From positions 1-20,704 of IMG/VR virus record IMGVR_UViG_3300009187_000937: DNA of 20,704 nt. The stretch is one strand, 5' to 3'. This document shows, piece by piece, positions 2 to 20,704 of this stretch. Under the pieces are notes generated by a model. That model saw only the letters and a list, made by a program, of their open reading frames with translations. It ran no database searches and had not been told where the DNA came from. Within the stretch, counting starts at the first letter, position 1; each line of letters starts with the position of its first letter. This DNA is from a virus. The position numbers and the translations under genes were made by a program.

Positions 2-526
2 ATCTTAGGTTGTTCAGGCAGCCAAAACAACAACAGTCTGGCCATAGACACTGCTTTGGGTGAAAAATTTATTATAGGTATGGAGTCTATACACAAGTAC
101 AAAGTGATATATCTCAATGGTCAATATCAAATTCAAAAAGATGGAGTATTAAACTCAGTGGAAAATGTGATTCATTCTAAAAAAACTGAAATAATCAATC
201 ACAACGTTTATAAAATTCCCAATAAAATTAAAAATCACAGTGGCATACAAATAAAATTACATTTGAATCAAAACAAAGTTGAATTCACAGCAGACAAAAC
301 ATTTAAAAAAACTTTAGAAACCATAGTTTCCAAAGAAAATCATCGTAACCACAAGTTTTATTGTTGCAAATCCAACGATGCCACACAACTGATTAAAATA
401 TTAGATTTGAATCTTTATGAACTGCTCACTCAAGACAGTGTGCAGATAGATGTGAATGCCGAGACAAACATGGACATTTACTGTAGAAAAACTTTTGATT
501 ATTCTATTGAAAGGATTTATGCATAA
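2..526 (+). CDS. Unknown protein, 5' end cut by window edge
   Basis: The reading frame is open from the first complete codon of the window, so the true start lies upstream; a TTG at 56 is only an internal candidate. The visible 174 residues begin ILGCSGSQNNN and continue through a lysine- and asparagine-rich, probably beta-rich middle. A CC pair sits near the centre (FYCCKS) and one more cysteine lies near the C-terminus (DIYCRK). I see no signal peptide, membrane segment or catalytic motif that I can name. The stop at 524-526 is overlapped by the ATG of the next gene (ATGCATAA, 519-526), so the two are probably translationally coupled. The GCSGS at the visible start might be a nucleotide- or SGNH-type loop, but without the N-terminus that is a guess. 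I do not recognise the family. Confidence 0.75.
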   Translation: MLGCSGSQNNNSLAIDTALGEKFIIGMESIHKYKVIYLNGQYQIQKDGVLNSVENVIHSKKTEIINHNVYKIPNKIKNHSGIQIKLHLNQNKVEFTADKTFKKTLETIVSKENHRNHKFYCCKSNDATQLIKILDLNLYELLTQDSVQIDVNAETNMDIYCRKTFDYSIERIYA

Positions 527-1427
527 GATTGCTATCAAAGATTGCGATGTGGTATTTTTGAGCTTTGATGAGCCCAATGCTGATAAAAATTATGCAGATT
601 TAAAAAGAAAAATACCTTGGGCCAAAAGAGTTCACGGCGTGGAAGGATCAGATGCTGCACACAAAGCCTGTGCTGCTGTGTCTGACACAGAATATTTTTT
701 AACTGTGGACGGAGACACACAACTAGATCCTAAATTTCTCAATATTCAACTGGATCTAAACAGCATGGGCATGGATCACACATATATTTTCAGCTGGTGT
801 GGACATACCAACGTGAATGGATTAAAGTATGGCAATGGCAGTTTAAAATTATGGACCAAAACTTTTGTGAATGAGATGAAAACACATGAAAATTTTTCTG
901 GTAAGGATAATAATGAGATAGAATTTTGTTATTTTGATAAACTGTTTCAATTCAATGAAAACTATTCCACCAGTTACATCAACAGCACACCCAAACAAGC
1001 ATGGAGAGCTGGATTTAGAGAAGGTGTTAAGATGAGTTTGTATAAAAATTTTAAAATACAGTCGTTGGATCAACTATGGTGGCAGAATTATCACAGATTA
1101 TTAATCTGGATGACTGTGGGTCAGGATGTGGAACATGGCATTTGGGCCATTGCAGGAGCCAGAGAAGGTTGTTATCGAACACTTTGCACCCAATGGGATT
1201 TCAAACAAGTGAGAGATTTTAAAGTTTTAGAACAATTATGGATCAGCACCAGCAACAATAACAGTATGAATGCACAAGATGCCAAACAAAAATGTATCTC
1301 TTTGGGTAAAACTATTAAAGAACGATTCCAAATGGAGTTTCCTACGGAACCATACGATGCAGAAAGCAGTGAATTTTTCAAAAAGGTGTATATCAATTCA
1401 CCCAGAACCATAAGAAAGACTGTATGA
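519..1427 (+). CDS. Glycosyltransferase-like protein (first of a tandem pair)
   Basis: This 302-residue protein is paralogous to the next gene. Shared blocks are EPNAD-NYA near residues 18-26, RVHGV-G at 37-43, VDGD at 63-66, YG-G--KL, W--(A/G)FRE-VK-S and LLIW-TVG. The VDGD, preceded by a hydrophobic strand, resembles the metal-binding DxD of GT-A type nucleotide-sugar transferases, so I infer a cytoplasmic glycosyltransferase; donor and acceptor are unknown. An upstream in-frame ATG exists at 456. I prefer 519 because the paralogue aligns from there, AAAGGA (510-515) lies just before it, and it gives the 8-nt overlap seen at other junctions in this window. It overlaps the next gene by ATGA. 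The GT call rests on the DxD and fold-like context only. Confidence 0.7.
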   Translation: MHKIAIKDCDVVFLSFDEPNADKNYADLKRKIPWAKRVHGVEGSDAAHKACAAVSDTEYFLTVDGDTQLDPKFLNIQLDLNSMGMDHTYIFSWCGHTNVNGLKYGNGSLKLWTKTFVNEMKTHENFSGKDNNEIEFCYFDKLFQFNENYSTSYINSTPKQAWRAGFREGVKMSLYKNFKIQSLDQLWWQNYHRLLIWMTVGQDVEHGIWAIAGAREGCYRTLCTQWDFKQVRDFKVLEQLWISTSNNNSMNAQDAKQKCISLGKTIKERFQMEFPTEPYDAESSEFFKKVYINSPRTIRKTV

Positions 1428-2131
1428 TGCACGATATATTTTTTATCAGTTACAATGAACCCAATGCAGATCAAAATTATGCTCTGTTGAAACAAAGATT
1501 TCCATTGGCGCAAAGAGTTCACGGAGTAAAAGGCATTCAACAGGCACATATCAAAGCTGCCACACAGAGTTTGACTAAAATGTTTTGGGTGGTGGATGGT
1601 GATGCAGTGATTGAACACAACTTTATGTTTGATTATGAAGTGCCTGATAAAGATATGGATGCTGTGCATGTGTGGAGAAGTCGAAATCCTATCAATGAAC
1701 TGGAATATGGTTATGGCGGAGTGAAATTATTGCCCAAAAGACTCACTATGAACATGGATCCCAACAGAATAGACATGACCACTAGTATATCTAATAGATT
1801 TAGAGCCATGCATGAAGTATCCAACACCACTGTGTTCAATACAGATCCATTCAACACATGGAAAAGTGCTTTTAGAGAGTGTGTCAAGCTCAGCAGCAAA
1901 GTAATCGATCGTCAAGAAGACAAGGAAACTGAAAAAAGATTATTGATTTGGTGCACAGTGGGAGATGATAAACCATACGGAGAGTATGCCGTTGCTGGAG
2001 CACTGGCAGGCAGAGTGTATGGCTCAGACAACCGAGATAATTCAGACACTTTGAGATTGATCAACAACTTTGAATGGTTGCGATTGGTGTTTGTGGGACA
2101 ATTTCCACACATGGAGAAAGAAATATTATGA
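1424..2131 (+). CDS. Glycosyltransferase-like protein (second of a tandem pair)
   Basis: At 235 residues this is a shorter paralogue of the preceding gene. It starts directly at the conserved block (MMHDIFFISYNEPNAD) and keeps RVHGVKG at 31-37 and WVVDGD at 55-60, the presumed DxD metal and nucleotide-sugar site. FRECVK and LLIWCTVGDD are also retained. It lacks about 60 residues that the first copy has, largely as a longer C-terminal tail. Start overlaps the upstream stop as ATGA and its own stop overlaps the next start as ATGA, so it sits inside a coupled operon. A GT-A type transferase is the best guess. That it follows its relative directly suggests tandem duplication and two related transfer steps, which is inference. 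Confidence 0.7.
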   Translation: MMHDIFFISYNEPNADQNYALLKQRFPLAQRVHGVKGIQQAHIKAATQSLTKMFWVVDGDAVIEHNFMFDYEVPDKDMDAVHVWRSRNPINELEYGYGGVKLLPKRLTMNMDPNRIDMTTSISNRFRAMHEVSNTTVFNTDPFNTWKSAFRECVKLSSKVIDRQEDKETEKRLLIWCTVGDDKPYGEYAVAGALAGRVYGSDNRDNSDTLRLINNFEWLRLVFVGQFPHMEKEIL

Positions 2132-3129
2132 TAGATTCCAACATTCCATTTGATAAAATTATAAACTTTGGTCAACGTACCATGCTGGACAGCAAATTAT
2201 TTTCTGTGAGTTGGATCTTGGCTCGTTTTTGCAACTATGATTGTTCTTACTGCTGGCCTTATGCCAAAAGCAAACAGAAAGATCACAGACCACTGTCAGT
2301 TTACACACAAGTGGTGGATGAAATCAAACGTCAGGCTAGACTGAATGGATTCACTGACTATCATTTCAGTTTTTCAGGTGGAGAACCCACTGCCTACAAA
2401 GATTTTTTACAATTGATACAGCATTACAGTGCTGATACTGCTCCAGAATATCAGAGTATTCACATGACCACCAACCTAAGTCCTTCGGAAAAATGGTGGG
2501 AAAGATGGTTGGAAGCCACAAAAACATTGAACCGCAGAAGTATCACTGCCAGCTTTCATGCTGAATTCGCTGATGAACAAAAATTTGGAGATAAAATATT
2601 GCTGTTGATGAAGCACAATGTGTTTGTCACAATCAATCAAGTGATGGTGCCCGAAAGATTCACAGAATACTATGATAGATGTGCAAGACTCCACTCCAGA
2701 GGTATCAATGTCACACTGAAACCACAGAGTGATCCCACAGCAAGTTTTATTATTGAAGGTTATACTCGAGATCAACTGAATACTTTACAAACAGGCTTCC
2801 CTCAACGCATTCAAGAAGGTGAAAATTACAAAGACTTGTTTCAAATTGAGATGCAAGATGTTCAAGGCAATAAGTATTATATGGATCAAGCAGAACGATT
2901 CAATGCTTTTGGGTTCAATAAATTCAAAGGATGGCACTGTAATGCTGGATATCAAAGTTGTATCATTAGAGAACCAAACGGAGAAGTCAAAAGAAGTTAC
3001 AGTTGTCATGATGAACCACTGGGCAATATAGAACAAGGATTTAAATTGTTTGATAAACCAAGAGTTTGTGTGACTCCCACTTGTGTGAGTTCAGCAGATT
3101 CAAAAATACCCAAGGCCAAACATGTATAG
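2128..3129 (+). CDS. Radical SAM protein with C-terminal cysteine-rich (SPASM/twitch-like) domain
   Basis: The 333-residue protein has the radical-SAM motif CNYDCSYC (C35, C39, C42), which binds a [4Fe-4S] cluster that cleaves S-adenosylmethionine to a 5'-deoxyadenosyl radical. GGEP at 84-87 is the second family hallmark. A C-terminal set of cysteines (GWHCNAG C271, C278, C293, C314, C319) probably binds an auxiliary cluster, as in SPASM or twitch enzymes. The start at 2128 is chosen over an in-frame codon at 2074 because it gives an ATGA overlap and follows GGAGAAAG. It is paralogous to the radical-SAM genes at 5963, 6855 and 10674; the block TDY----F-GGEPT-YKDF is nearly shared with the 6855 gene. 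The substrate is unknown; the neighbouring transferases suggest a modification pathway. Confidence 0.9.
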   Translation: MIDSNIPFDKIINFGQRTMLDSKLFSVSWILARFCNYDCSYCWPYAKSKQKDHRPLSVYTQVVDEIKRQARLNGFTDYHFSFSGGEPTAYKDFLQLIQHYSADTAPEYQSIHMTTNLSPSEKWWERWLEATKTLNRRSITASFHAEFADEQKFGDKILLLMKHNVFVTINQVMVPERFTEYYDRCARLHSRGINVTLKPQSDPTASFIIEGYTRDQLNTLQTGFPQRIQEGENYKDLFQIEMQDVQGNKYYMDQAERFNAFGFNKFKGWHCNAGYQSCIIREPNGEVKRSYSCHDEPLGNIEQGFKLFDKPRVCVTPTCVSSADSKIPKAKHV

Positions 3130-4111
3130 ATATCAAGATATAAGAGATATTCATTTGGAAATCACCAGCAAGTGTCAAGCCAAGTGCCCCATGTGTCCTA
3201 GAAGAATCAGTGGAGGACCAATAAATCCATTTATTAAATTGGACGAAATAACTTTGGGCGTATTCAAACAATGGTTTGAACCAGATTTCATAAAACAATT
3301 GGAAAGTTTATTCATGTGTGGTAATTTGGGAGATCCCATCATATCCAAAGACACATTGGAAATATATCAATACTTGCGTGAACTAAATCCCAACATTAGA
3401 TTGGCCATGCACACCAACGGCAGTGCTAGAGATACCGAATGGTGGAAAAGATTGGCTCAATTGAAAGTAAAAGTGACATTTGGTATTGATGGTTTGGCAG
3501 ATACCCATCATCTTTATAGAATCAGTACAGATTTCAATAAAATAATTGAAAATGCTCAAGCATTTATCTCAACAGGTGGAGTGGCCAAATGGCACATGTT
3601 GGTGTTTGCTCACAATGAACATCAAATTGAACAGTGTAGAACAATGTCCAAAGACATGGGCTTTGTGGATTTCTCAATCAAACACACTTCTAGATTCAAA
3701 CAGGATTATTTACAAGTGATTGATGACATGGGTAGACCCACACACAGAATCAAACCCACTCAAACCAGTTTGGATATGATTCCGTTGTCTGAAGCCGCAC
3801 AAAAAGAAGTCAAACCACACATTGCTTGTAAAGCACAAAAATACAAACAGTTGTATGTGAGTGCTTGTGGTAATGTGTCGCCTTGTTGTTGGTTGGATAT
3901 GGAATGGATACCACCCATGCAAGAATCTAGAGTGGATTATATGGAAAAAATTTCTAAATTTCCCAACTTACATCGCGAAACATTGAAAGAAATATTTGAT
4001 AATGGATTTTTTTCAAAAATAGAAACACAATGGAGCACAGTGGGATTGAAAGAATGCACCAAGCAGTGTGGTTCATTTGATAAACTAGGAGCACAATTTG
4101 TTGAAAATTAA
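3122..4111 (+). CDS. Radical SAM protein with SPASM-type C-terminus
   Basis: This 329-residue protein carries CQAKCPMC (C18, C22, C25) close to the N-terminus. CGNLGDP at 66-72 takes the place of the usual GGEP loop, a variant seen in several SPASM radical-SAM groups. The C-terminal cysteines C236, C249, C255, C256, C312 and C316 fit a SPASM domain holding one or two auxiliary iron-sulfur clusters; the SACGNVSPCCW stretch is typical. SPASM enzymes modify peptides, proteins or sugars, for example by thioether formation, sulfatase maturation or dehydrogenation, so either substrate class is possible here. Start overlaps the previous stop by 8 nt (ATGTATAG). It is clearly a different lineage from the 2128, 5963, 6855 and 10674 genes, with a shorter N-terminal lead and a different cysteine spacing. 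Confidence 0.9.
   Translation: MYRYQDIRDIHLEITSKCQAKCPMCPRRISGGPINPFIKLDEITLGVFKQWFEPDFIKQLESLFMCGNLGDPIISKDTLEIYQYLRELNPNIRLAMHTNGSARDTEWWKRLAQLKVKVTFGIDGLADTHHLYRISTDFNKIIENAQAFISTGGVAKWHMLVFAHNEHQIEQCRTMSKDMGFVDFSIKHTSRFKQDYLQVIDDMGRPTHRIKPTQTSLDMIPLSEAAQKEVKPHIACKAQKYKQLYVSACGNVSPCCWLDMEWIPPMQESRVDYMEKISKFPNLHRETLKEIFDNGFFSKIETQWSTVGLKECTKQCGSFDKLGAQFVEN
4087..4091 (+). promoter_or_regulatory. Ribosome binding site (AGGAG) for a TTG start
   Basis: AGGAG lies inside the 3' end of the upstream radical-SAM gene, 6 nt before TTG at 4098 and 9 nt before TTG at 4101. No ATG occurs nearby in that frame, so this site supports a TTG start for the methyltransferase gene. Confidence 0.6.
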
Positions 4112-4712
4112 TATACAAGACGTTTTATTTTGGATGGATGCTATCAGACAATCTGATGACAGATATCGCACATTGGAAAGTTTCTGGAAAGGTCAAATCA
4201 ACAGCAAAGTATGGTTGATTGAACAATTAAAAAAATTACCCAGAGCACACAGCATGGATATTTTGATTTGTGGTGGGTGGTATGGAGTGATGGCCACACT
4301 TTTGTTCAACAGTGATCTGTATGTGAACCAAATAACCAGCATGGATATAGACAGCAAGTGTGAAAACACAGCCAACACCATGAACAAACAGTATGAAATG
4401 TCTGGCAAATTCCATGCTATTACTCAAGACATGCTCACTTATAAAGATTACAGTCGTTATGACATGATTATTAACACAGTGTGTGAACATTTAACGCCAG
4501 AACAATACAATGAATGGTTGAAATTAATACCTGAGGACAAAATTATTGTGTGCCAAAGCAATGATTTTGTGATTCCTGAACATGTGAACCCTGTGAAAGA
4601 TTTGAATCAGTTTGTGAGCAATAGTAAACTGTATCCTATTGTGGAGCCCAGCGAATTACAAACAGAAAAATACAAAAGATTTATGATTGTAGGAAAGAAA
4701 AATGAAAAATAA
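4098..4712 (+). CDS. Class I SAM-dependent methyltransferase
   Basis: The 204-residue product shows a Rossmann-type methyltransferase core. ILICGGWYG at 55-63 is the glycine-rich motif I that binds S-adenosylmethionine, and MDID at 82-85 ends strand 2 with acidic residues for the ribose hydroxyls. QDM near 110-112 and DMIINTVCEHL at 122-132 match motif III/IV, with the acid and hydrophobic strand before the catalytic region. The acceptor cannot be deduced. It starts with TTG (4098 or 4101), supported by AGGAG at 4087-4091, and overlaps the upstream gene by 11-14 nt and the downstream one by 11 nt. Placement between two radical-SAM genes suggests methylation of the same unknown product. The N-terminal 50 residues are helical and not recognised. 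Confidence 0.75.
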   Translation: MLKINIQDVLFWMDAIRQSDDRYRTLESFWKGQINSKVWLIEQLKKLPRAHSMDILICGGWYGVMATLLFNSDLYVNQITSMDIDSKCENTANTMNKQYEMSGKFHAITQDMLTYKDYSRYDMIINTVCEHLTPEQYNEWLKLIPEDKIIVCQSNDFVIPEHVNPVKDLNQFVSNSKLYPIVEPSELQTEKYKRFMIVGKKNEK

Positions 4713-5970
4713 AAGTTGTACATTTTGTATGCATCCATTCACAGGATTGGCCACCAGAGAAGATGGTGCTATAAAGGTGTGTTGCAGAAGTTTACCCATC
4801 AGTAATATACAAAATGAAACCATGGAACAGGCATGGAACAATGAAAAGATGAAAGAAGTGCGACGTCAGGTGTTGAATGATGAGCGACCTGATGTGTGTG
4901 CGCCTTGTTTTGATCTAGAAGATCAAGGAGTGCAGAGTTTGAGACAAAGACACATCAGTGATAATATTCCTGAATCTAGAATCAATCTATATCCCACGGC
5001 TTTGGACAGTTTAAAAGAAGATTATACCATGCCTTTTGAATTGCCCACTATGGAAATCAAAATTAATAACTTGTGCAACTTGAAATGTCGTATGTGTAAT
5101 CCATTGGACAGCACACAATGGAAAGACTGGAACAGTATTGTGGATCATTACAAGAAAGAAAACAATTACTTGGTCAAAGCAGTGGAAGATCTGGGTTTGA
5201 CACAGGCTCCGCATGTGGATCTGTTTGAAGATAAACCACATTTTTGGGACAATTTAAAAAAACTTATTCCTCATTTTAAACGTGTGGAATTTGCTGGTGG
5301 CGAACCTCTAATGGATCCCACACATTATAAAATATTGGACCTATTGAGTGAGAATGGATCCAACATTGAGATCAAATATGCCACCAATGGCACAGTGTTG
5401 GGCATCAAAGGTGGTAGGACTATACAGGAATACTGGCCCAAATTTAAAAGTGTGGCAGTGAATGTGAGTATTGATGGAATCTTTGACACTTATGAATATA
5501 TCCGAGGCAATGGCAAGTTCATGGATGTGGTCAACAACATAAAAATAATAAAACAAATACCCACAGTGAGTAGAATAGTGGGAGCATTCACAGTGCAAGC
5601 CAACAATATCATGCAAATAGACCGTGTGATTGATTACTTTTTAAATGATTTGGGCATTGTGTTTTACAGTCACAGAGTAAACTATCCCCGAGCATTGAGT
5701 GCTCAAGTGTTGCCAGCAAAATTAAAAAATCAAGTGATAGACAAACTGGAAGCAATGAAACCTCGAATTAAAGATTATGCATTGGTCCAACAGCATCCAA
5801 TATTGGAAAAAATTACTCTACAACAAATACAGGACAACATTAATTTTTTAAAAGCCAAAGATCTTAATCAATACTGGATGGATTGTGTGGATTTTAATCG
5901 CCGATTAGACATCACAAGAAATCAAGGACCTTTTGAAAAAATAAATCCGGAGTTTGCTGATTATGTTTAA
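4702..5970 (+). CDS. Radical SAM protein with N-terminal twitch-type cysteine domain
   Basis: In this 422-residue protein a cysteine domain comes first: C6, C9, a CC pair at 27-28, then C66 and C69 (CAPC). The radical-SAM barrel follows with CNLKCRMC (C125, C129, C132) and AGGEPLM, GGEP at 199-202. I recognise this order from a family annotated as twitch-domain-containing radical-SAM proteins, common in marine phage and metagenome sequences; the front domain would hold an extra iron-sulfur cluster. SIDG and the NG-turn (ATNGT) later in the barrel fit the fold. Its closest relative here is the minus-strand gene at 8451. The start is preceded by AGGAAAG and overlaps the methyltransferase stop by 11 nt; its own stop overlaps the next start by 8 nt. 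Substrate unknown. Confidence 0.9.
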   Translation: MKNKSCTFCMHPFTGLATREDGAIKVCCRSLPISNIQNETMEQAWNNEKMKEVRRQVLNDERPDVCAPCFDLEDQGVQSLRQRHISDNIPESRINLYPTALDSLKEDYTMPFELPTMEIKINNLCNLKCRMCNPLDSTQWKDWNSIVDHYKKENNYLVKAVEDLGLTQAPHVDLFEDKPHFWDNLKKLIPHFKRVEFAGGEPLMDPTHYKILDLLSENGSNIEIKYATNGTVLGIKGGRTIQEYWPKFKSVAVNVSIDGIFDTYEYIRGNGKFMDVVNNIKIIKQIPTVSRIVGAFTVQANNIMQIDRVIDYFLNDLGIVFYSHRVNYPRALSAQVLPAKLKNQVIDKLEAMKPRIKDYALVQQHPILEKITLQQIQDNINFLKAKDLNQYWMDCVDFNRRLDITRNQGPFEKINPEFADYV

Positions 5971-6865
5971 AGTGGAACACTTGTATCCTCATATCAGAAA
6001 CAGTGTCAAAGTGGAATGGAATCTTGGCAAACGATGCAATTTGGATTGCAGCTATTGTCCAGCAGAAATACATGACAATCACAGTGAACACACTGATATA
6101 GAAATACTGAAACGCACTGTGGACACATTGAGCGTTATACCCAATGTGAGAATCAGTTTGACTGGCGGTGAACCTTGTGTGCATCCACACATAGAACAGT
6201 TGTTACAACATGCCAAAAATAAAATTGGTTGGATCAATGTCACCACCAATGGTACCAGAACTGTGGAATTTTACCAAAATATTTTGGAAAACTATATCAA
6301 TCATATTGTGTTCAGTGTGCATTTGGAATCTGATTGGCTGAAGGTGATAAACACAATTATCAAGGTTTACGCACAGTCTGCCAACAAAAATGTTCTAGTG
6401 CATATGATGATGCTGCCAGGACGTTTAAAAGACGTTAAAGACGCTTGTGAGGCTCTTTTAGATGCGGGCATACGCTATGCTCTGAGACCCATACGCTGGA
6501 CCAAAACACACGATGATTTTGAAGACATGATTCATTACAGTGCGGAAGAGAAAGAATTTTTGGCAGTAAACAATCATACCCCACCAAAAAATACTCTCAT
6601 AGACAACACAGTGGAATGCAATGTGAATGATTTACTGATCAACAAAACCAATCAATTTCTAGGATGGAGTTGTATGGCTGGTGTGGAAAGTCTTATGATC
6701 AATTGGGATGGTGCAGTTCACCGAGCCACTTGTAGAGTGGGTGGCAGTTTGGGCAACATCTATCAAGGCACTTTTGCAAAACCCACAACACCTATTGATT
6801 GTACTCGCAAATGGTGCACTTGTGCTGCAGACATAAACATAACCAAGTTGAACAATGTTGATTGA
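5963..6865 (+). CDS. Radical SAM protein with C-terminal cysteine-rich domain
   Basis: This compact 300-residue radical-SAM enzyme has CNLDCSYC (C25, C29, C32) and GGEP at 68-71. Its C-terminal signature is GWSCMAG (C237), then C257, then C280, C285 and C287 in DCTRKWCTC, followed by AAD. That ending is shared with the genes at 2128, 6855 and 10674 and probably coordinates an auxiliary cluster. I take ATG 5963 rather than the TTG at 5954 because it gives an 8-nt overlap (ATGTTTAA) with the upstream stop and has CGGAG upstream at 5948-5952. It overlaps the next gene by 11 nt. A radical chemistry step on an unknown substrate is all that can be said; a peptide, sugar or nucleotide are equally open. 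Confidence 0.88.
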   Translation: MFKVEHLYPHIRNSVKVEWNLGKRCNLDCSYCPAEIHDNHSEHTDIEILKRTVDTLSVIPNVRISLTGGEPCVHPHIEQLLQHAKNKIGWINVTTNGTRTVEFYQNILENYINHIVFSVHLESDWLKVINTIIKVYAQSANKNVLVHMMMLPGRLKDVKDACEALLDAGIRYALRPIRWTKTHDDFEDMIHYSAEEKEFLAVNNHTPPKNTLIDNTVECNVNDLLINKTNQFLGWSCMAGVESLMINWDGAVHRATCRVGGSLGNIYQGTFAKPTTPIDCTRKWCTCAADINITKLNNVD

Positions 6866-14377: not shown

Positions 14378-14955
14378 AAAAAAAATTACAGTTTGATTAT
14401 TTTCCAGTGATGCGTTCTTCTTATGTAGCCAATGAACTGGTTGCTGAAGGTAAGTTACAGGATCAATTGATACTGCAATGGAACAACTCTGTATTGTTTG
14501 ATACCATAGAATTAAGCAAGGAAACTGCTGAAAAAAAAAGCATAAGCAGAAGCGCTGAAATTGTTTTACAAAAAAACAATAACACATTGGTACTACAAAA
14601 TAAACAAAGTTGGCATGATGACAAACAAATAGAACTCACAGCTCAAATTGAGTTGATTTATAAAGATGTAGACTGGTGGTCATGTAAATTTACCTATAAC
14701 TTATCACTGTGTGATGCACAATCATTGCAATCTTTCAATGACAAATTTGGTATCAGTCAAGAATACTTCCATTTTAAACTGAATGGCGAAACACTGATAC
14801 ACAATCAAAACGTGCAAGCAGGCACCACCTTGAGTGCAGAAAAAGAATTTTTTTGGCAAGGAGTCAATCCTATCATGTTTGAAATTGAAGAATACGGACA
14901 TGGCAGCAGCATGGACAGTAGATTTATACAGATAGTGAGGTTCACAGTATTATGA
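14374..14955 (+). CDS. Unknown protein, probably beta-rich
   Basis: I do not recognise this 193-residue protein. It starts with a lysine run (ATG plus nine A) and contains alternating hydrophobic strands such as IELTAQIELIY, WWSCKFTYNL and FHFKLNGETLI, which suggests a beta-sandwich. A second nine-A run lies at 14531-14539. The C-terminus has HGSSMDSRFIQIVRF. Only two cysteines occur, and there is no signal peptide or membrane segment. It is coupled by ATGA overlaps to the oxygenase upstream and the dehydrogenase-like gene downstream, so it should act in the same pathway, perhaps as a binding or scaffold partner, or as the modified substrate. Those roles are inference from position only. Confidence 0.75.
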   Translation: MKKKLQFDYFPVMRSSYVANELVAEGKLQDQLILQWNNSVLFDTIELSKETAEKKSISRSAEIVLQKNNNTLVLQNKQSWHDDKQIELTAQIELIYKDVDWWSCKFTYNLSLCDAQSLQSFNDKFGISQEYFHFKLNGETLIHNQNVQAGTTLSAEKEFFWQGVNPIMFEIEEYGHGSSMDSRFIQIVRFTVL

Positions 14956-15506
14956 AAATATTAATGACCGGACATACTTCTCCCATAGGATCTGTGTTGT
15001 TTGAACATCTCAAACATCATCATGAAGTTGTGGGCATATCTAGAAACACTGGATACAATTTGAACAAATTGGAAGATATTCAACGAGTGGTTGATCAAAG
15101 TGCGAGTTATGACCATTTTGTCAATCTAGCACACGTGGGTGATGCACAGATTCAACTGTTGATGATGGTTCATAAAAAATGGAGTGAAACAAATAAAACA
15201 GGCAAAATAGTAACTTTTGGTACATTGGGTACTGAGTTATCAGAAGATATTTTAAAACAAGTGGGCGCTGATTTAAATTATATTAAACAAAAAACTCATT
15301 TGGAAAATGTGCATAGGTTTTTAAGTGTTAAAACACCATTTGGTGCTCAACCTCAAAGTGTGCTGATACGAATTTTAAATTATGGTGAAAAAACCGGAGT
15401 TAGACAGAGTGAACCCTTCTGTGATACTCAAGATATCATTCGTATTTTTAATACTGTATTGAATGAGCCTTTGTACGTCAGCACTATTGATGTAAGAAAA
15501 ATTTAA
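14952..15506 (+). CDS. Short-chain dehydrogenase/reductase-like protein (short)
   Basis: The 184-residue protein begins MKILMTGHTSPIG, a glycine-rich dinucleotide loop (residues 6-13) after a beta strand, as in NAD(P)-dependent short-chain dehydrogenases. VVGISRN follows, where strand 2 meets the cofactor ribose. FVNLAHVGD near 56-64 fits the NNAG position, TFGTLGTEL the catalytic serine/threonine strand, and Y110 with K114 (YIKQK) is the YxxxK pair. So the core appears intact, although the protein is some 60 residues shorter than typical members. It would oxidise or reduce a hydroxyl or carbonyl group. GAGG lies upstream, the start overlaps the previous stop by ATGA, and its 3' end overlaps the convergent amidinotransferase gene by 4 nt. 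Confidence 0.7.
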   Translation: MKILMTGHTSPIGSVLFEHLKHHHEVVGISRNTGYNLNKLEDIQRVVDQSASYDHFVNLAHVGDAQIQLLMMVHKKWSETNKTGKIVTFGTLGTELSEDILKQVGADLNYIKQKTHLENVHRFLSVKTPFGAQPQSVLIRILNYGEKTGVRQSEPFCDTQDIIRIFNTVLNEPLYVSTIDVRKI

Positions 15507-16576
15507 TTTATTATCTTTCTTTTTGAACCTTTTCTTTTAACATCTAGTGTGCAGCAATGAGTTCCACCTTCCCAATATACTTCGTGACGTTGTGGCACCA
15601 CATGACAATTGATGTTGAAAGTCTTTAAATATTGAAATAGTTCAGGTAAATGTTTGCCAAACAATATGTTTTTTGAATCTAAAATTAATACGTTTAAATC
15701 AAAACAAACTTCTTGTGTGTATCCTCGCCAATTAGCCAGATATTGCTCCAACCAAGCATTGGAATATCTGCCATCTGTGGCAGTGTAGTCTTTGATATAG
15801 TTGTCTATCACAACTTTGCCAACGTAGTTTTTAACATCTATTAATTTTTTATTTCTTAATGCCAAAGGCACCCATTCTATGCCAGCATGTATTACTGTGT
15901 CATCGTCTATTAATAAAAATCCATGATCAATATGTCCGTAGTTTTTAAACACAGTATCACCAGTGTTTTCAATCAGTGTATAATCCTTACAATTACGTTT
16001 GAACCATTCCAAACCAAAGCTAGAACCAGGACCTCTACTGTTATACAGCAAAGAATCTCCTGCTTTGAATATGGCAGCTGTGTGCCATAGCAATTGATCT
16101 GATAATTTTTCTTGATAGATAGAGTCAGATATGTACCAATTTTCATCTATCTGAGTGTTGATTAGTTTGGGCAGAGGCTGTGAAATCCAATTGTATCCTT
16201 CTTTGAATAATTCATTAAAAATTTTCACATAACTCAACGAATCAAAATATCTATCTGTGTAGCTGGTGTAAGTTTGTATAATTTGTCTATCCAAAATCAG
16301 ATATTGATCTCTAGGTACCATGGGGCACATGGGAAAATTCACTTTAAAATTAGGCATCTCTATAGATTTTGTGTATTTTAGTACTTCTGGTCTATGCACT
16401 TTGATGTTAGAGTTTTTTATAAAATCTGCAAGATTGTTAAGGTCTTGTTTGGTTTCTTCCAGTATTCTGTTGAAACTTGATATGCTTTCTTTGGGTAAAA
16501 AATGATCCATATCTCCAGGAGCATAACAATCTCCCACAATTACTTCTTGTAATGGATCAAATTCTGTGTGTATCAT
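15503..16576 (-). CDS. Glycine amidinotransferase-like enzyme
   Basis: This 357-residue protein belongs to the guanidino-group-modifying superfamily. FDPLQEVIVGD at the N-terminus, CPMVPRDQYLI at 84-94, GHIDHGF at 214-220 (H215, D217) and GGTHCCTLDVKRKG at 337-350 (C341) match the order of L-arginine:glycine amidinotransferase. In that enzyme the catalytic cysteine lies in a GG-HC-T-DVRRRG motif and the histidine in H-x-D. The expected reaction moves the amidino group of arginine to an amine through a thiouronium intermediate on C341. The acceptor here need not be glycine. It is last in the minus operon after the aminotransferase and the P4H-like oxygenase, which could supply or further oxidise the amine. 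It overlaps the upstream gene by ATGA. Confidence 0.85.
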   Translation of the reverse strand: MIHTEFDPLQEVIVGDCYAPGDMDHFLPKESISSFNRILEETKQDLNNLADFIKNSNIKVHRPEVLKYTKSIEMPNFKVNFPMCPMVPRDQYLILDRQIIQTYTSYTDRYFDSLSYVKIFNELFKEGYNWISQPLPKLINTQIDENWYISDSIYQEKLSDQLLWHTAAIFKAGDSLLYNSRGPGSSFGLEWFKRNCKDYTLIENTGDTVFKNYGHIDHGFLLIDDDTVIHAGIEWVPLALRNKKLIDVKNYVGKVVIDNYIKDYTATDGRYSNAWLEQYLANWRGYTQEVCFDLNVLILDSKNILFGKHLPELFQYLKTFNINCHVVPQRHEVYWEGGTHCCTLDVKRKGSKRKIIN

Positions 16577-17127
16577 ATTAAGTATTTGTGATTAATAAAC
16601 ATCTGTAAAGAATATCGAATCACTTCTTGGTTGGTTATTGCTGTAACTGCGTGATCAAGATCTTTGGAATTAATTATAACTCTATTACCTATGGGTTCAA
16701 CAAACTTGCCCTGTGTATCATTTTTATTTTCTTTGTAAACAAATAATCCTCCGTCATTTGTTTGCCAAACATCATTTAAGAAAATTGTTATGCCTATGTA
16801 ATCCAATTCATCTTTTTCAGCATACAATCCATCCAAATGCCATCTAGCATTGTAGGGAGCTCTATTGACATGATAGCGTAGCATACTGTCGTTATCATCC
16901 ATCACTTCAGCAGACAACAACTTATTTGCCACTAAATTTTTTAATACAATAATTTTAGCAGGACCATTTAAAAAATAATAATTGCTATTTTCTAATCCTA
17001 CATGATCTTTTTCTGTGCTCAGGTCGGATTTTTTAATAGCACTGATTTCGTTAGCTATTTCGTTTTGAATGGCTTTTTTTAGTTCTGATAGCGTTGCAGA
17101 GTCAAAAAAATTATCAATTATTTTCAT
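16573..17127 (-). CDS. 2-oxoglutarate/Fe(II) oxygenase, prolyl-4-hydroxylase-like
   Basis: The 184-residue protein fits the P4H-like 2OG-Fe(II) family closely. MKIIDNFFD opens the fold; NARWHLDGLY gives H97 and D99; IGITIFLND and DGGLFVYKE are the usual strands after it. PIGNRVIINSKDLDHAV gives H159, and R171 in VIRYSLQMF binds 2-oxoglutarate. It should hydroxylate an amino-acid-type carbon in the cytoplasm, using O2 and 2-oxoglutarate. It overlaps the aminotransferase stop by 14 nt and the amidinotransferase start by ATGA. The order aminotransferase, hydroxylase, amidinotransferase suggests that a hydroxylated guanidino or amino compound is made, which is inference. All four cofactor residues are present, so it is probably active. 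Confidence 0.85.
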   Translation of the reverse strand: MKIIDNFFDSATLSELKKAIQNEIANEISAIKKSDLSTEKDHVGLENSNYYFLNGPAKIIVLKNLVANKLLSAEVMDDNDSMLRYHVNRAPYNARWHLDGLYAEKDELDYIGITIFLNDVWQTNDGGLFVYKENKNDTQGKFVEPIGNRVIINSKDLDHAVTAITNQEVIRYSLQMFINHKYLI

Positions 17128-18229
17128 ATGATTCTAAATTTTGTTTAAGCACAGTAAAATATTCTTCAGTAGCATTCAAAGGCACAATATATAAATTTTT
17201 ATAATTGCCTTTGCGTATCATATAGAGGCAACCAAAACGATTCAGTATTTCAAAACCTGTGCTTTGAATAGTTTTAACAGCAGTGTTTTGAATTGTTTGA
17301 TGGTTGTTCAATACCTGTTCTTTTTCCAGTATGTCCATATATTTTAAAGCACTGTTGATGCCTGACAGAGAAAAATTATAGGTGTATCCATGATCCCAAT
17401 CAAAGTTTGTGGGCAGTGTTTGATGTATTTTTTCATTGTACATGGTAATGCTCAAAGGAAAATATCCACCTGTGATGGCTTTGCCCATGGTGCAGATATC
17501 AGGTTGTATGGGCAAGTGTTTCCACCCAAAATAATTACCTGTTTTGCCTCCCCCTATAAAAATATCATCCATAATGATCAACACATCAAATGTTTGTTGA
17601 ACATGTTTTAATTTTTGCCAAAACTCATTTGAGTTTGGAGTCATGTCCCCACCGTATGAACATGGTTCTACTATCACACTCATCACTTTGGTCCAATCCA
17701 CTTGATCTATTTCAAAATCTCTGGCAAGTCTTGTTGCACCATGATACCTATCCATGTTGTACATGGGATTGATCATCAGTAGATCTCCAAGATTATTGTT
17801 AAGGAAAGTGCTGCCGTGATAACTGCCCTCAAAACTTATCACTTGTTTTTTGTTATTGTTTTTCTTCACATGATGATAGGCAGAAGATAACTTTATTGCT
17901 CCTTCGTTGGCATCACTGCCTGACAATGCGAAGAAGCTTCTATATCCGCCACTCATCTTAAACAATTTATTGCTGAGTTCATAACTTGCATGGTTTAATT
18001 TTAAATCTTCAGCATGCACAATAGATTCTGCTATTTCTGGTTTGATATTTTTCATAGCATCACACACATATTGAATGATATCTGTTCTATCGAATCCCAA
18101 AGTAAAGCAACTATAATGCAACAAAGGATCAACCTTTTTAACGCCATTCATAACAGTACCAAATTGCCAATGTTTGTCTGCTGGATGTGTGGGCTGCTGT
18201 CTGCCAGGTATAAGTCCTTTGAGAGTCAT
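17114..18229 (-). CDS. Class III PLP-dependent aminotransferase
   Basis: In this 371-residue enzyme SGSDANEGAIKL (103-114) and SYHGST (136-141) are the PLP-phosphate and cofactor-stacking motifs of class III (omega) aminotransferases. IIMDDIFIGGGKTG supplies D221, which contacts the pyridine nitrogen, and MGKAITGGYFPLS places the Schiff-base lysine at K250. These motifs match glutamate-1-semialdehyde aminomutase and related omega-transaminases. It is about 50-60 residues shorter than usual, mainly at the C-terminus. It would convert an aldehyde or ketone to an amine, or the reverse; glutamate semialdehyde mutase activity seems less likely given the neighbours. An 8-nt gap separates it from the upstream gene, the only plain intergenic gap in this operon. 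Confidence 0.88.
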   Translation of the reverse strand: MTLKGLIPGRQQPTHPADKHWQFGTVMNGVKKVDPLLHYSCFTLGFDRTDIIQYVCDAMKNIKPEIAESIVHAEDLKLNHASYELSNKLFKMSGGYRSFFALSGSDANEGAIKLSSAYHHVKKNNNKKQVISFEGSYHGSTFLNNNLGDLLMINPMYNMDRYHGATRLARDFEIDQVDWTKVMSVIVEPCSYGGDMTPNSNEFWQKLKHVQQTFDVLIIMDDIFIGGGKTGNYFGWKHLPIQPDICTMGKAITGGYFPLSITMYNEKIHQTLPTNFDWDHGYTYNFSLSGINSALKYMDILEKEQVLNNHQTIQNTAVKTIQSTGFEILNRFGCLYMIRKGNYKNLYIVPLNATEEYFTVLKQNLESYENN

Positions 18230-18237
18230 AGCAATAA

Positions 18238-18774
18238 TTATAGTATTTCAAATTGTAATTGATCGTATGTGATGGCTGAAGTGTTATCAAAAACTTTTTT
18301 GGTTTCCACGCTGAAACAACAGTATCCGTTGGCATCTATGAGATCCTTAAAATTTATGTTTTGATGTTGTCCTTGATGATATTCCTTGCCCACTGAGTGA
18401 GTGTATTGATTACACTTCACTGTGATACGATAGTCATCTGACACATGTTCACTGCCTTGCACACTGTTGAGTCTGATCAACTGCACATGACTTTGATACA
18501 GATAATTTATTGGTTTAAGACTCCATATAATTTTGGCCTGCTCTTCCACTGAGTGAAATTTAATATCATAATTGAATTCAAAAACGTTGATATTATCGAA
18601 CACAATGGATTTTTCTAATATTATAGGAAGATTCTCCTCTGCATCATCAATGTTGGCAAATATTTTTTGTGCGTTGTGATACACATTCAACTTGTTGATA
18701 TAATTGTCATGTTGACGAGACATGTATTTTTTATTAAATTCTTTGGGGCAGGTAATACGCACTGTTCTATTCAT
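18238..18774 (-). CDS. Unknown protein, probably beta-rich
   Basis: The product is 178 residues from ATG 18774, chosen because it overlaps the upstream stop as ATGAATAG; an earlier in-frame ATG at 18810 would lie deeper in the neighbour gene. The sequence is rich in N, H, Y and Q with alternating strands (INVFEFNYDIKFHS, SHVQLIRLN, YRITVKCN), suggesting a beta-sandwich, and ends YDQLQFEIL. A GYCCFSVETKK stretch has a CC pair. I see no catalytic motif, signal peptide or membrane helix. It lies between an oxygenase pair and the aminotransferase, so it may be a partner or substrate protein; the position is similar to the unknown gene at 14374, but I could not align the two. Confidence 0.7.
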   Translation of the reverse strand: MNRTVRITCPKEFNKKYMSRQHDNYINKLNVYHNAQKIFANIDDAEENLPIILEKSIVFDNINVFEFNYDIKFHSVEEQAKIIWSLKPINYLYQSHVQLIRLNSVQGSEHVSDDYRITVKCNQYTHSVGKEYHQGQHQNINFKDLIDANGYCCFSVETKKVFDNTSAITYDQLQFEIL

Positions 18775-19384
18775 GAATATAATCTTTGAATATTTGCACA
18801 GCTTCTTCAAATTGTAGATGTGTGTTATCTAATTTTAACAGAGTAAAACACAGTGTCCAACGATCTTCAGTCATGTTGGGATTGAATGTGCTGTGCAGTT
18901 GTCCTATGTTCATCAAACTGGGTCTATTGATCACTTGCTCATGCACCAAATCACAATCTTCTTCACGTGCTGAGTAAGCATCTGTGACCACTATATCGGG
19001 CACCACACCCGCAATTAATATATGACTATTGTCTGGTTTGACCGGTTTTAAATATTCAGGTTGTTTCACATGCCACCATCTGGTCACACTGTTGTCTGGT
19101 CCCCAGGTAAAATTAATTTTTACAGCATTGCTTATGGTAGAGGTATCATTGTGCAGAGGTATCTTTCCACCATTTGTGGGAGTATAAAATCCTTCAATAA
19201 GATTGGATACTTTTAAATCGAAGGACTCGATCCATTTGATCACACTTTGGTCAATTGATTCTGGCAAAACATATATCATATTAGGATGATCATAACTTTT
19301 ATTAAAACATCTTGGTTTTAAATATTCAAATGGTAATTTTAAGTATCTGTGATAATAATTTTGATCAGACATAGTTTTATTCAT
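18767..19384 (-). CDS. 2-oxoglutarate/Fe(II) oxygenase-like protein (tandem pair, second)
   Basis: In this 205-residue protein IPLHNDTSTISNAVKINFTWGP gives H78 and D80, GQLHSTFN gives H164, and EDRWTLCFTL gives R175, an HxD...H...R set. It is a clear paralogue of the gene directly upstream: WGPDNS-TRWW, R-HSTFN or Q-HSTFN, EDRW, LQF-EA--IFKD-IHE are shared. The family resembles jelly-roll oxygenases, but I cannot assign it further. The conserved WGPDNS-TRWW block between the two metal-site halves is distinctive and could contact substrate. Start and stop both overlap their neighbours by 8 nt (ATGAATAA, ATGAATAG). Differences between the two copies in the insert after TRWW suggest different substrates or steps. 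Confidence 0.65.
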   Translation of the reverse strand: MNKTMSDQNYYHRYLKLPFEYLKPRCFNKSYDHPNMIYVLPESIDQSVIKWIESFDLKVSNLIEGFYTPTNGGKIPLHNDTSTISNAVKINFTWGPDNSVTRWWHVKQPEYLKPVKPDNSHILIAGVVPDIVVTDAYSAREEDCDLVHEQVINRPSLMNIGQLHSTFNPNMTEDRWTLCFTLLKLDNTHLQFEEAVQIFKDYIHE

Positions 19385-20000
19385 GTATTATGTCTTTAAA
19401 AATTTCTAATGCTTCAAAAAATTGTAATCTTTTATTATTTTTCATTAATGTAAGAGTAAGACCCCATCGATCTTCACTGCCATTATTAAATGTACTATGC
19501 AATCTGCCTGCGTTAATTATGCTTGGTTTAGATAAAACTTTTTCATACAATAAATTACAATCTTTTTCTTCATAACACAGTGCTCTGTCCGCATCATCAA
19601 ATTCATAAACATACGTGTCAGGATTGAAAATTTCAGCATGCGGGCCTCCTTGATCTGGTCGCATCTTTGAAGAAACTGCATCAATTTTAGGCTCCCACCA
19701 TCTAGTGAAACTGTTGTCTGGCCCCCAAATAAAAAGTAATTTGGTCATGTCCGACAATGTATCTGTATCGCTGTGTATGCCAATAGATCCATTATTAGGT
19801 GCAGTGTAAGTTCCTTCAAAAAATTGAGATGTGGAAATATTAAAACTATCCAACCATTCAAGGATTCTTTTATCAACATGCTGTTTAGCTATTTCAAAAG
19901 TCATACCACCACTTGACCAGTTAGGCACTTTTAATGTATCAAAAATTTTTGGTCTATCTATGGTAAAAGGTAGATTTATAAAACGATGAAAGTTATTCAT
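19377..20000 (-). CDS. 2-oxoglutarate/Fe(II) oxygenase-like protein (tandem pair, first)
   Basis: The 207-residue paralogue of the following gene has GIHSDTDTLSD with H76 and D78, GRLHSTFN with H168 and EDRWGLTLTL with R178, so the presumed iron and 2-oxoglutarate residues are kept. WGPDNSFTRWW at 92-102 is the shared central block, and the tail FEALEIFKDIIHE matches the other copy almost exactly. The insert after TRWW differs (KMRPDQGGPHAEIFNPDTYVY), which may reflect substrate choice. ATG at 20000 lies one base after the preceding stop (TAATATG), and the stop overlaps the next start by 8 nt. Fold and metal site are inferred from spacing; another cupin activity cannot be excluded. Confidence 0.65.
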   Translation of the reverse strand: MNNFHRFINLPFTIDRPKIFDTLKVPNWSSGGMTFEIAKQHVDKRILEWLDSFNISTSQFFEGTYTAPNNGSIGIHSDTDTLSDMTKLLFIWGPDNSFTRWWEPKIDAVSSKMRPDQGGPHAEIFNPDTYVYEFDDADRALCYEEKDCNLLYEKVLSKPSIINAGRLHSTFNNGSEDRWGLTLTLMKNNKRLQFFEALEIFKDIIHE

Positions 20001-20001
20001 A

Positions 20002-20704
20002 TTAATAATTTTTTAAATGATCGATGCCTAATTTTTTTCTAAATGCATCGGTGAACACACAGTCAATTCTCAATCCATACTCTTGTTCACGATTAATTTC
20101 TCCACCATGCCAGTCTTGATCGTTCCAGAAAGCTGCATTGGCATTGATGTAGGTTTTGTTTTTTGTTTCAGGATCCCAAATATAAAATCCTCTTTTGGTG
20201 TTATAACGTATGTGTATGAACTCATTGCGATGATCACTGTATCCTTGTTGATCACCCAGTTTGCCATCTAGATCTCTGTGTTCAAATGGTTGTCCATCAT
20301 GTTCACAGTGAAAAAATATCACTCTGCCTATTTGACTGATAATGTTTTGATCCACAAGATTTTTAACCCATGTGACCAATCCAGGAAAATGTTTGCTTTC
20401 CTCTGTGAGATGTCTTTCAGAATTTCTATTATCCCAATCGCCTTCATTCCATAAAAAATAATAGATGTATGGATCTTTGGCACCCAACACTGCTTTGAGG
20501 TAGCGTGTGAATTGATTTCTTGTGCGGTAATCTTTGATATTGGCATACAAATCATCACCGTTTTTTCTAATAGGATGATCTATGGGCAGTGCAAGATATT
20601 CTTTCACAGCCTGATAAATTGGTTTCCAATTCAATTGATAACTCATGTCTTGTAGATTAAATCCTGGTGACATCCATGTGCCTTCTTTGGCATATTCTCT
20701 AGCC
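20002..20704 (-). CDS. 2-oxoglutarate/Fe(II) oxygenase-like protein, 5' end cut by window edge
   Basis: The frame stays open to the window edge (residues AREYAKEGTW precede the first ATG at 20673), so the real start probably lies outside; ATG 20673 and ATG 20646 are internal candidates. Counted from ATG 20673, FEHRDLDG gives H132 and D134, DQDWHGGEIN gives H189 and YGLRIDCVF gives R202. The order TEESKHFPGLV-W-K, HRD, DWHGG is shared with the plus-strand gene at 13622, so the two are paralogues. Its extra SDHRNEFIHIRYN segment follows the metal site. It is first of the visible genes in the minus operon that ends with the amidinotransferase. Likely a hydroxylase acting on an amino-acid- or sugar-like group; the substrate is unknown. 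Confidence 0.65.
   Translation of the reverse strand, partial: AREYAKEGTWMSPGFNLQDMSYQLNWKPIYQAVKEYLALPIDHPIRKNGDDLYANIKDYRTRNQFTRYLKAVLGAKDPYIYYFLWNEGDWDNRNSERHLTEESKHFPGLVTWVKNLVDQNIISQIGRVIFFHCEHDGQPFEHRDLDGKLGDQQGYSDHRNEFIHIRYNTKRGFYIWDPETKNKTYINANAAFWNDQDWHGGEINREQEYGLRIDCVFTDAFRKKLGIDHLKNY

What the first reader, a model, noticed from the sequence alone, without database searches (positions are those of the whole stretch)
519..20704. Dense biosynthetic-type cluster: seven radical-SAM proteins beside seven HxD...H oxygenase-like proteins
Radical-SAM motifs (CxxxCxxC) are seen at 2128, 3122, 4702, 5963, 6855, 8451 and 10674. HxD...H sets are seen at 11780, 13072, 13622, 16573, 18767, 19377 and 20002. 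Around them lie an amidinotransferase, a class III aminotransferase, a QueC-like ATPase, a methyltransferase, an SDR-like enzyme, an SGNH hydrolase and two glycosyltransferase-like genes, with no housekeeping or transport gene between. I know of no described pathway with this gene set. The radical half occupies 2.1-11.7 kb and the oxygenase half 11.8-20.7 kb, so the cluster may combine an O2-independent part with an O2-dependent part.
Basis: partly seen in the sequence, partly recalled or inferred. Interest (0 to 1): 0.78.

Follow-up and report, generated by a model that had tools for sequence, protein, structure and literature searches.

The report
Phage radical-SAM and oxygenase gene cluster
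An uncultured T4-like phage carries, a few genes from its tail genes, a tightly packed and recurring set of radical-forming and oxygen-using enzymes together with likely sugar-transferring enzymes, probably to build or decorate an unusual glycan whose target is still unknown.

Summary
All seven CxxxCxxC proteins pass Pfam Radical_SAM; all seven HxD...H proteins keep the triad plus a basic residue, though only g13, g20 and the g23/g24 family have profile or fold support. The window is a fragment of an uncultured T4-like phage. In a near-identical 77.6-kb contig the cluster lies between tail and DNA-metabolism genes. 261 IMG/VR stretches encode g10 relatives; the nearest 80 were kept. In 22 of 22 of these with 7 kb on both sides (11 lineages), g02-g07, g10, g13 and g15 occur together, so radical and oxygenase genes share one core. 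Five core proteins searched in 50,697 deposited phage records hit only two Vibrio phages, distantly. dN/dS is 0.03-0.22 in 23 testable genes. Some relatives add sugar-nucleotide genes; g02 models with a GT-A-type fold. Most likely it is a late-expressed glycan synthesis and decoration cassette; virion or host target is undecided. Radical-SAM-rich T4-like marine phages are already in print; I found no account of this combined core.

The parts
1..526 (+). g00, unknown protein, cut by the window edge
   Evidence: 11 of 22 long loci
522..1427 (+). g01, glycosyltransferase-like (GT-A type by its paralogue)
   Evidence: 36% identity to g02; aligned in A6; 15 of 22 loci
1424..2131 (+). g02, glycosyltransferase-like, GT-A-type fold, core
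   Evidence: invariant D58 and D60; AF2 pLDDT 92.6; VIA Z 11.7 to B4GALNT1, 10.9 to WrtF and also to IspDF; 22 of 22
2131..3129 (+). g03, radical SAM 1, core
   Evidence: PF04055 52.8 bits; C34, C38, C41 conserved in 29 rows; 22 of 22
3122..4111 (+). g04, radical SAM 2 with C-terminal SPASM, core
   Evidence: PF04055 40.1, PF13186 24.3 bits; 22 of 22
4098..4712 (+). g05, methyltransferase-like (weak), core
   Evidence: PF13649 14.1 bits below cut-off 27; 22 of 22
4702..5970 (+). g06, radical SAM 3, N-terminal-twitch family, core
   Evidence: NF033640 323.3 bits, cut-off 170; 22 of 22
5954..6865 (+). g07, radical SAM 4 with C-terminal Cys cluster, core
   Evidence: PF04055 62.9 bits; conserved C25/29/32 and C237/257/280/285/287; 22 of 22
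6855..7835 (+). g08, radical SAM 5, accessory
   Evidence: PF04055 40.6 bits; 3 of 22
7793..8485 (+). g09, SGNH-like hydrolase (weak), accessory
   Evidence: no Pfam or PHROG match; G18 D19 S20 conserved in 4 rows; 3 of 22
8451..9869 (-). g10, radical SAM 6, N-terminal-twitch family, lowest dN/dS of the core
   Evidence: NF033640 389.5 bits; 80-86% identity to 14 relatives picked from the nearest 80; dN/dS 0.03-0.05
9856..10677 (-). g11, PP-loop ATPase, QueC-like, near-core
   Evidence: phrog_1550 QueC-like E 2e-5; S42 G43 G44 D46 S47 and C255, C258, C261 invariant; 20 of 22
10674..11756 (-). g12, radical SAM 7, near-core
   Evidence: PF04055 48.6 bits; 20 of 22
11730..11779 (.). divergent late-promoter-like motifs between g12 and g13
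   Evidence: minus-strand ATAAATA at 11731; plus-strand ATAAGTA about 5 nt before g13; function inferred
11780..12463 (+). g13, Asp/Asn-beta-hydroxylase-like 2OG oxygenase, core
   Evidence: profile A2 to 7v4f E 1.9e-15; H78 D80 H122 R132; 22 of 22
12444..13079 (+). g14, kinase-like by eye only, frequent
   Evidence: Y23, E61, K129 invariant; no PHROG match, no Pfam match over cut-off; 18 of 22
13072..13620 (+). g15, HxD...H oxygenase-like, core, multi-copy in some relatives
   Evidence: H108 D110 H165 K175; weak profile match to the g13 family, probability 58%; 22 of 22
13622..14377 (+). g16, HxD...H oxygenase-like, paralogue of g25
   Evidence: H170 D172 H222 R236 in 4 rows; 28% to g25 over 128 residues; 4 of 22
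14374..14955 (+). g17, unknown
   Evidence: 7 of 22
14952..15506 (+). g18, short SDR/epimerase-like protein
   Evidence: PF01370 22.4 bits, cut-off 20.9, residues 3-64 only; 19 of 22
15503..16576 (-). g19, amidinotransferase
   Evidence: HsvA 2.9e-22, SxtG 1.5e-19, 1bwd 2.5e-19, AGAT 5.2e-15; 8 of 22, one lineage
16573..17127 (-). g20, 2OG-Fe(II) oxygenase
   Evidence: PF13640 32.7 bits, cut-off 27; 8 of 22
17114..18229 (-). g21, class III PLP aminotransferase
   Evidence: PF00202 E 5.4e-43; 8 of 22
18238..18774 (-). g22, unknown; in the same 8 loci as g19-g21
18767..19384 (-). g23, 2OG-type oxygenase
   Evidence: AF2 pLDDT 92.5; VIA Z 10.1, rmsd 2.6, 123 aligned to 7v4f; H78 D80 H164 R175
19377..20000 (-). 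g24, 2OG-type oxygenase, paralogue of g23
   Evidence: 40% to g23; aligned in A5; 1 of 22
20002..20673 (-). g25, HxD...H oxygenase-like; longer (268 aa) in the near-identical contig, so its start lies beyond the window
   Evidence: H132 D134 H189 R202; 15 of 22

Best explanation
A phage-borne, probably late-transcribed pathway that assembles and decorates an unusual glycan. Inferred chain: g01/g02 and two neighbouring glycosyltransferase-like genes transfer sugars; the radical-SAM enzymes (g03, g04, g06, g07, g10, g12) and 2OG-type oxygenases (g13, g15 and others) oxidise, epimerise or otherwise activate C-H positions on the sugar or its carrier. In this lineage an extra module could act in order: 2OG oxidation of an alcohol (g20), transamination of the carbonyl (g21), and amidino transfer from arginine (g19), giving a guanidino group. 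The acceptor is either the virion's own fibre or tail proteins or the host's surface glycan. Shown: gene families as marked, conserved core, placement near tail genes, purifying selection, sugar-nucleotide genes in some relatives. Inferred: glycan product, order of steps, acceptor, late timing.
For: Core g02-g07, g10, g13, g15 in 22 of 22 long loci, 11 lineages at 95% g10 identity. Sugar-nucleotide enzymes in relatives, beside or among the core genes: UDP-glucose/GDP-mannose dehydrogenase in L034, L059, L070; NDP-sugar epimerase in L070; PfkB sugar kinase and mannose-P-isomerase cupin in L067. GT-A-type fold for g02, with glycosyltransferases first in both structure lists. Amidinotransferase related to the inosamine-phosphate enzyme 1bwd. 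Fibre-type genes a few genes upstream in three genomes. Motif ATAAATA in 24 of 68 gene-upstream regions against 3.8 in shuffles, among them fibre and baseplate genes; a copy with at most one mismatch before g13 in 22 of 27 and before g11 in 20 of 29 distinct upstream stretches, against 59 of 226 for g02-g07. dN/dS 0.03-0.22 in the 23 genes with a usable pair.
Against: No activity is known to me for any core radical-SAM family here. Sugar-nucleotide genes were seen in four relatives, not in the window, and I chose which 18 of 81 accessory ORFs to scan. Nucleotidyltransferases tie with glycosyltransferases in fold (IspDF Z 10.9 against 11.7), and peptide glycosyltransferases such as SunS are also listed. 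The two tail-adjacent genes that I read as glycosyltransferases have no Pfam match. Promoter evidence is mixed: the g13 motif lies about 5 nt from its start codon; measured from the longest frame g12 has it in 3 of 34; operon-internal g23 (7 of 11) and g19 (4 of 5) also score high at one mismatch. The g20-g21-g19 module is in one of 11 lineages. The core count comes from the 80 nearest of 261 relatives, so more distant ones may differ.
Confidence: 0.5

Rival explanations
1. Peptide-type modification of the phage's own tail or fibre proteins: radical-SAM enzymes and Asp-hydroxylase-like oxygenases modify side chains of a virion protein, possibly followed by glycosylation, like a RiPP pathway whose substrate is a structural protein.
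For: Tail genes lie a few genes upstream. g13 is of the Asp/Asn-hydroxylase type, g04 has SPASM; many of the weak radical-SAM hits are peptide maturases. A tail-adjacent protein of G001 is the most Ser/Thr-rich of 229 proteins of 150 aa or more (26%).
Against: No separate precursor gene fits in the window (33 non-coding bases). Those radical-SAM hits are far below cut-off. The Ser/Thr richness is weaker in relatives (18% in G005; the G012 relative is not in the top 25).
Confidence: 0.2
2. Synthesis of a diffusible small molecule, for example a guanidino- or nucleoside-type antibiotic or signal.
For: Amidinotransferase, class III aminotransferase and 2OG genes resemble antibiotic pathway parts; g13 and g23 match 7v4f, titled a hydroxylase of a nucleoside-antibiotic pathway.
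Against: No exporter or resistance-type gene recognised in the window (four genes are unassigned); the cluster lies near tail genes in the three genomes examined; g19-g22 are in one of 11 lineages.
Confidence: 0.12
3. A loose collection of auxiliary genes gathered in a plastic region without one shared pathway.
For: The tail-side region is hypervariable in T4-like marine phages (PMC7029224, passages), and many genes here are accessory.
Against: A nine-gene core is kept in 22 of 22 long loci through rearrangements, under purifying selection.
Confidence: 0.1
4. DNA, RNA or tRNA base modification (QueC-like ATPase plus radical SAM).
For: g11 has a PHROG QueC-like match, E 2e-5; g07 matches a PHROG QueE-like radical-SAM family, E 1.7e-11, as weaker do g06, g08 and g10.
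Against: g11 is missing from 2 of 22 loci; of the ten proteins given to NCBIfam none passes the cut-off of a queuosine-pathway model (g07 scores 42.8 against 260 for a QueE model); the sugar genes are unexplained.
Confidence: 0.06

Closest known systems
Host-recognition hypervariable island of pelagimyophages (PMC7029224; passages read)
   Same: T4-like marine phages, island beside tail genes, glycosyltransferases, radical-SAM cassettes mentioned
   Different: the passages read name no oxygenase partner core; capsid and baseplate proteins of the phages here match large T4-like phages best in the rows shown
TARA_ERS488813_N000010, 183-kb T4-like contig with 12 radical-SAM genes (PMC5332604; section 14 read)
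   Same: very radical-SAM-rich uncultured T4-like phage; may be the same group, not tested
   Different: discussed there as Fe-S cluster supply; the A-type carrier that it has was found in 0 of 18 records here and IscU in 0 of 18, most records being fragments
Vibrio phages K566/K567 radical-SAM cluster
   Same: several radical-SAM proteins similar to g06/g10 in one region of a deposited phage genome
   Different: 20-30% identity; no g02 or g13 homologue and only a weak local g03 match; annotated neighbours are nicotinamide genes and PagP, with no gene annotated as tail within about 18 kb
Aminocyclitol guanidination (inosamine-phosphate amidinotransferase, 1bwd; the name StrB1 and its streptomycin pathway are recalled)
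   Same: amidinotransferase homologue (E 2.5e-19) next to an aminotransferase
   Different: HsvA is a closer relative (2.9e-22); the rest of that pathway was not seen

Membership tests
Radical SAM superfamily | PF04055 over curated cut-off | tested here: met
   7 of 7 proteins, 39.2-62.9 bits against 29.5
Radical SAM superfamily | CxxxCxxC conserved in relatives | tested here: met
   family alignments; g08 rests on 4 rows
N_Twi_rSAM (NF033640) | score over 170 bits | tested here: met
   g06 323.3 and g10 389.5; of the four other radical-SAM proteins given, g03, g04 and g12 score 26-57 and g07 does not show it in the 25 rows listed; g08 was not given
2OG-Fe(II) oxygenases | HxD...H triad with a following R/K | tested here: met
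   7 of 7 claimed families; g24 within A5
2OG-Fe(II) oxygenases | double-stranded beta-helix fold or profile match | tested here: inconclusive
   found for g20, g13, g23/g24; none for g15, g16, g25
2OG-Fe(II) oxygenases | 2OG-dependent turnover | not testable with these tools
   needs assay
GT-A glycosyltransferases | GT-A-type fold with DxD | tested here: met
   model of g02; invariant D58, D60; Z 11.7, rmsd 2.6, 136 aligned
GT-A glycosyltransferases | glycosyltransferase rather than nucleotidyltransferase | tested here: inconclusive
   IspDF at Z 10.9 ties
Amidinotransferases | full-length homology | tested here: met
   HsvA, residues 2-354 of 357, E 2.9e-22
QueC | QueC profile over a curated cut-off | tested here: inconclusive
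   PHROG QueC-like 24.6 bits; Pfam lists only PP-loop 14.7 below 27; NCBIfam only TilS_N below cut-off
RiPP gene cluster | precursor peptide gene in the cluster | tested here: not met
   33 non-coding bases between genes; a precursor elsewhere is not excluded
Pelagimyophages | nearest relatives by virion genes | tested here: inconclusive
   the 15 rows shown of 2486 capsid matches and 15 of 62 baseplate matches are other large T4-like phages; the rest were not listed

The most novel reading that the evidence does not exclude
A group of uncultured T4-like phages carries, near its tail genes, a dedicated late pathway in which radical (O2-independent) and 2OG (O2-dependent) chemistry act on one substrate to build a guanidinylated or otherwise hypermodified glycan, or glycosylated side chains, on its own tail fibres, so that the adhesion surface is chemically diversified by swapping cassettes rather than by fibre mutation.
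Probability: 0.22. Interest if true: 0.88.

Novelty: new variant of a known kind. Interest (0 to 1): 0.62.

Why it matters
Radical-SAM genes have been noted in marine viruses as auxiliary genes (PMC5332604, PMC7029224, PMC7150976). Here they form, with oxygenase-like and glycosyltransferase-like genes, a core kept in the 11 lineages that could be tested, while five core proteins searched in 50,697 deposited phage records found only two distant relatives. If it modifies virion or host surface, it is a large untapped set of sugar- or peptide-modifying enzymes and a new way in which phages may set host range or exclude rivals; the conserved core genes give direct targets for expression and assay.

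Tried and rejected
Introns in g10: some IMG/VR matches span 1.8-1.9 kb; rejected, because in L006 and L008, for example, a g12-like paralogue begins where g10 ends. Phage-encoded Fe-S supply: PF01521 and PF01592 found in 0 of 18 records each; most are fragments. Canonical TATAAATA late promoter: 7 sites in three genomes, uninformative; the shorter ATAAATA came from a k-mer count against mononucleotide shuffles. Sigma-70 promoters and intrinsic terminators: not clearly above shuffles. Bacterial origin: the genome scan with A1 gave 8 pattern matches, of which one, a 3.5-kb contig binned as an archaeon, encodes a relative, probably a stray phage contig; the scan used two peptide patterns, so it is weak. 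Profile linkage among oxygenase families: A4 to A2 and A3, and A5 to A3 and A4, failed; A5 to A2 weak, probability 38%. The A5 match to designed protein Tako8 (E 4.5e-8) is taken as a local artefact. PDB sequence search found nothing for the glycosyltransferase-like profile and nothing meaningful for g11. Foldseek for g23 lists cysteine oxidases, oxalate oxidase and seed globulins among its first rows, all at TM under 0.5 to the model. Paper searches on the gene set and on virion glycosylation: I opened six of the listed papers; the others I judged by the listing. bioRxiv and most subscription journals are not held. The host was not determined and the habitats of the contigs were not shown to me.

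Full report
What is there. The window holds 25 complete or nearly complete genes plus one cut at the left edge, in four alternating blocks: g00-g09 on +, g10-g12 on -, g13-g18 on +, g19-g25 on -. Only 33 of the first 20,673 bases lie outside genes. The record is a virus record of exactly this length. Seven genes are radical-SAM enzymes by Pfam. Two of them, g06 and g10, belong to NCBI's N-terminal-twitch subfamily NF033640, far over its cut-off. The seven HxD...H genes keep the triad and a following basic residue in their family alignments; of 26 gene families only these and the amidinotransferase g19 do so, with few rows for g16, g20 and g24. g20 passes a Pfam 2OG cut-off, g13 matches the beta-hydroxylase 7v4f by profile, and the g23/g24 family folds confidently (pLDDT 92.5). 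Its best structural neighbours are 7v4f (Z 10.1, rmsd 2.6, 123 aligned), a BesD-like hydroxylase (Z 9.9, rmsd 3.5, 154 aligned) and PHD2 (Z about 9, rmsd about 3.6, 142 aligned), rows that are tied or nearly so; Foldseek's own list mixes 2OG enzymes with other cupins. g15, g16 and g25 have motif evidence only.

Where it sits. A 77.6-kb contig, G001, carries the cluster at 99-100% protein identity. To its left are a baseplate wedge protein, a tail-lysozyme hub protein, a 2,294-aa virion structural protein and three proteins matching tail, fibre or virion structural families, then a few small genes and two that I read by eye as GT8-type glycosyltransferases, although neither has a Pfam match. 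To its right are an HNH endonuclease, an ATPase and an exonuclease. Homologues of the left-hand genes lie in the same order in G005 and G012. Gp23 is found in 3 of 18 records searched. The capsid protein of G012 is 72% identical to that of Sinorhizobium phage Phosso and 71% to that of Pseudomonas phage PA5oct; the baseplate protein of G001 is 35-38% identical to those of Atu_ph07, Phosso and SCTP-2. The host is unknown.

Recurrence. A scan of IMG/VR with g10 found 261 stretches encoding relatives, of which the nearest 80 were kept; more distant ones were not seen. Of these 80, 22 have at least 7 kb on both sides of g10; they fall into 11 lineages at 95% g10 identity. Genes were assigned by best tblastn score at E 1e-6, which for paralogous radical-SAM genes is approximate. 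g02, g03, g04, g05, g06, g07, g10, g13 and g15 are in 22 of 22; g11 and g12 in 20; g18 in 19; g14 in 18; g01 and g25 in 15; g00 in 11; g23 in 10; g19-g22 in 8, all from one lineage; g17 in 7; g16 in 4; g08 and g09 in 3; g24 in 1. Gene order and strand differ between lineages while the core stays together. The 23 genes with a usable pair have dN/dS of 0.03-0.22, lowest for g10; several pairs have dS above 1, so values are rough, and g20 and g24 gave no pair. Against 50,697 deposited phage records, megablast of the whole window found nothing; g10 and g06 hit only Vibrio phages K566 and K567, distantly; g02, g03 and g13 hit none.

What it does. Genes inserted in relatives give the best clue. I listed 81 distinct unassigned ORFs from 25 loci and scanned 18 of them and two genes of G001 with Pfam. 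Three loci carry UDP-glucose/GDP-mannose dehydrogenases, one an NDP-sugar epimerase, one a PfkB sugar kinase and a mannose-phosphate-isomerase cupin; others carry further oxygenases (TauD, 2OG-FeII_Oxy_3, Asp_Arg_Hydrox), another radical-SAM type and a desaturase. Nine of the 20 had no match at E 0.01 or only one below cut-off. The model of g02 has a GT-A-type fold (pLDDT 92.6); its best alignments are B4GALNT1 (Z 11.7, rmsd 2.6, 136 aligned) and WrtF (Z 10.9, rmsd 3.0, 133 aligned), tied with the nucleotidyltransferase IspDF (Z 10.9). The amidinotransferase g19 is related to HsvA, SxtG and inosamine-phosphate amidinotransferase. Together these favour synthesis and decoration of a glycan. The adjacent trio g20 (oxygenase), g21 (class III aminotransferase) and g19 (amidinotransferase) could turn an alcohol into a guanidino group; that order is my inference.

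When. A k-mer count upstream of 68 genes in three genomes found ATAAATA in 24, against 3.8 in shuffles; it precedes fibre and baseplate genes and resembles the T4 late promoter (recalled). A copy with at most one mismatch precedes g13 in 22 of 27 distinct upstream stretches and g11 in 20 of 29, against 59 of 226 for g02-g07; exact copies are 4, 9 and 0. Other genes in that call, at most one mismatch (exact in brackets): g10 16 of 54 (1), g12 3 of 34 (0), g14 9 of 27 (0), g15 8 of 34 (0), g18 3 of 14 (0), g25 5 of 11 (2), g23 7 of 11 (0), g19 4 of 5 (0). So the loose match alone does not mark operon heads. For g13 the start was chosen by script, for the others the longest frame was used. In the window the minus-strand copy at 11731 lies inside the longest g12 frame, just before a later possible start. 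The g13 copy is about 5 bases from the start codon, so its role is uncertain. Late timing is likely, not shown.

Target. Proximity to fibre genes and late-type motifs fit modification of the virion; sugar-nucleotide genes and the published reading of the pelagimyophage island (PMC7029224, passages) fit change of the host surface. I cannot decide.

Novelty. Radical-SAM-rich T4-like marine phages are in print (PMC5332604, section 14; PMC7029224, passages), and radical-SAM genes are reported as common in some marine viromes (PMC7150976, passages). The joint core of radical-SAM, glycosyltransferase-like and oxygenase-like genes and its context were not described in anything I saw through eight completed searches, most of whose papers I saw only as listings.

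Noticed in passing
L100:18495-19640 (G001, about 1.4 kb beyond the window's right edge); relative L023:556-1788: An eighth radical-SAM gene (PHROG); its relative in L023 carries the HMPTM N-terminal zinc ribbon over cut-off, a type different from the seven in the window.
   Followed up: partly
L099:13338-14234: A tail-adjacent protein between the fibre-type genes and the cluster is the most Ser/Thr-rich of 229 proteins in three genomes (26%); a possible glycan acceptor, though relatives are less rich.
   Followed up: partly
L103 (Vibrio phage K566, about 161-170 kb and 178 kb of the record): A deposited phage with five radical-SAM proteins similar to g06/g10 near glycosyltransferase-like genes (by eye) and an annotated PagP; could serve as a laboratory model.
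   Followed up: partly
L072:9142-10795, L065:16517-17616, L070:18369-19522: The g15 oxygenase family occurs in two or three neighbouring copies in several relatives (rows of A3).
   Followed up: no
L102: A 3.5-kb contig binned in a Thermoplasmata MAG carries g10 and g07 relatives; probably a misbinned phage piece.
   Followed up: no
L006:31-531: A fatty-acid-desaturase-like gene near the cluster in one lineage.
   Followed up: no
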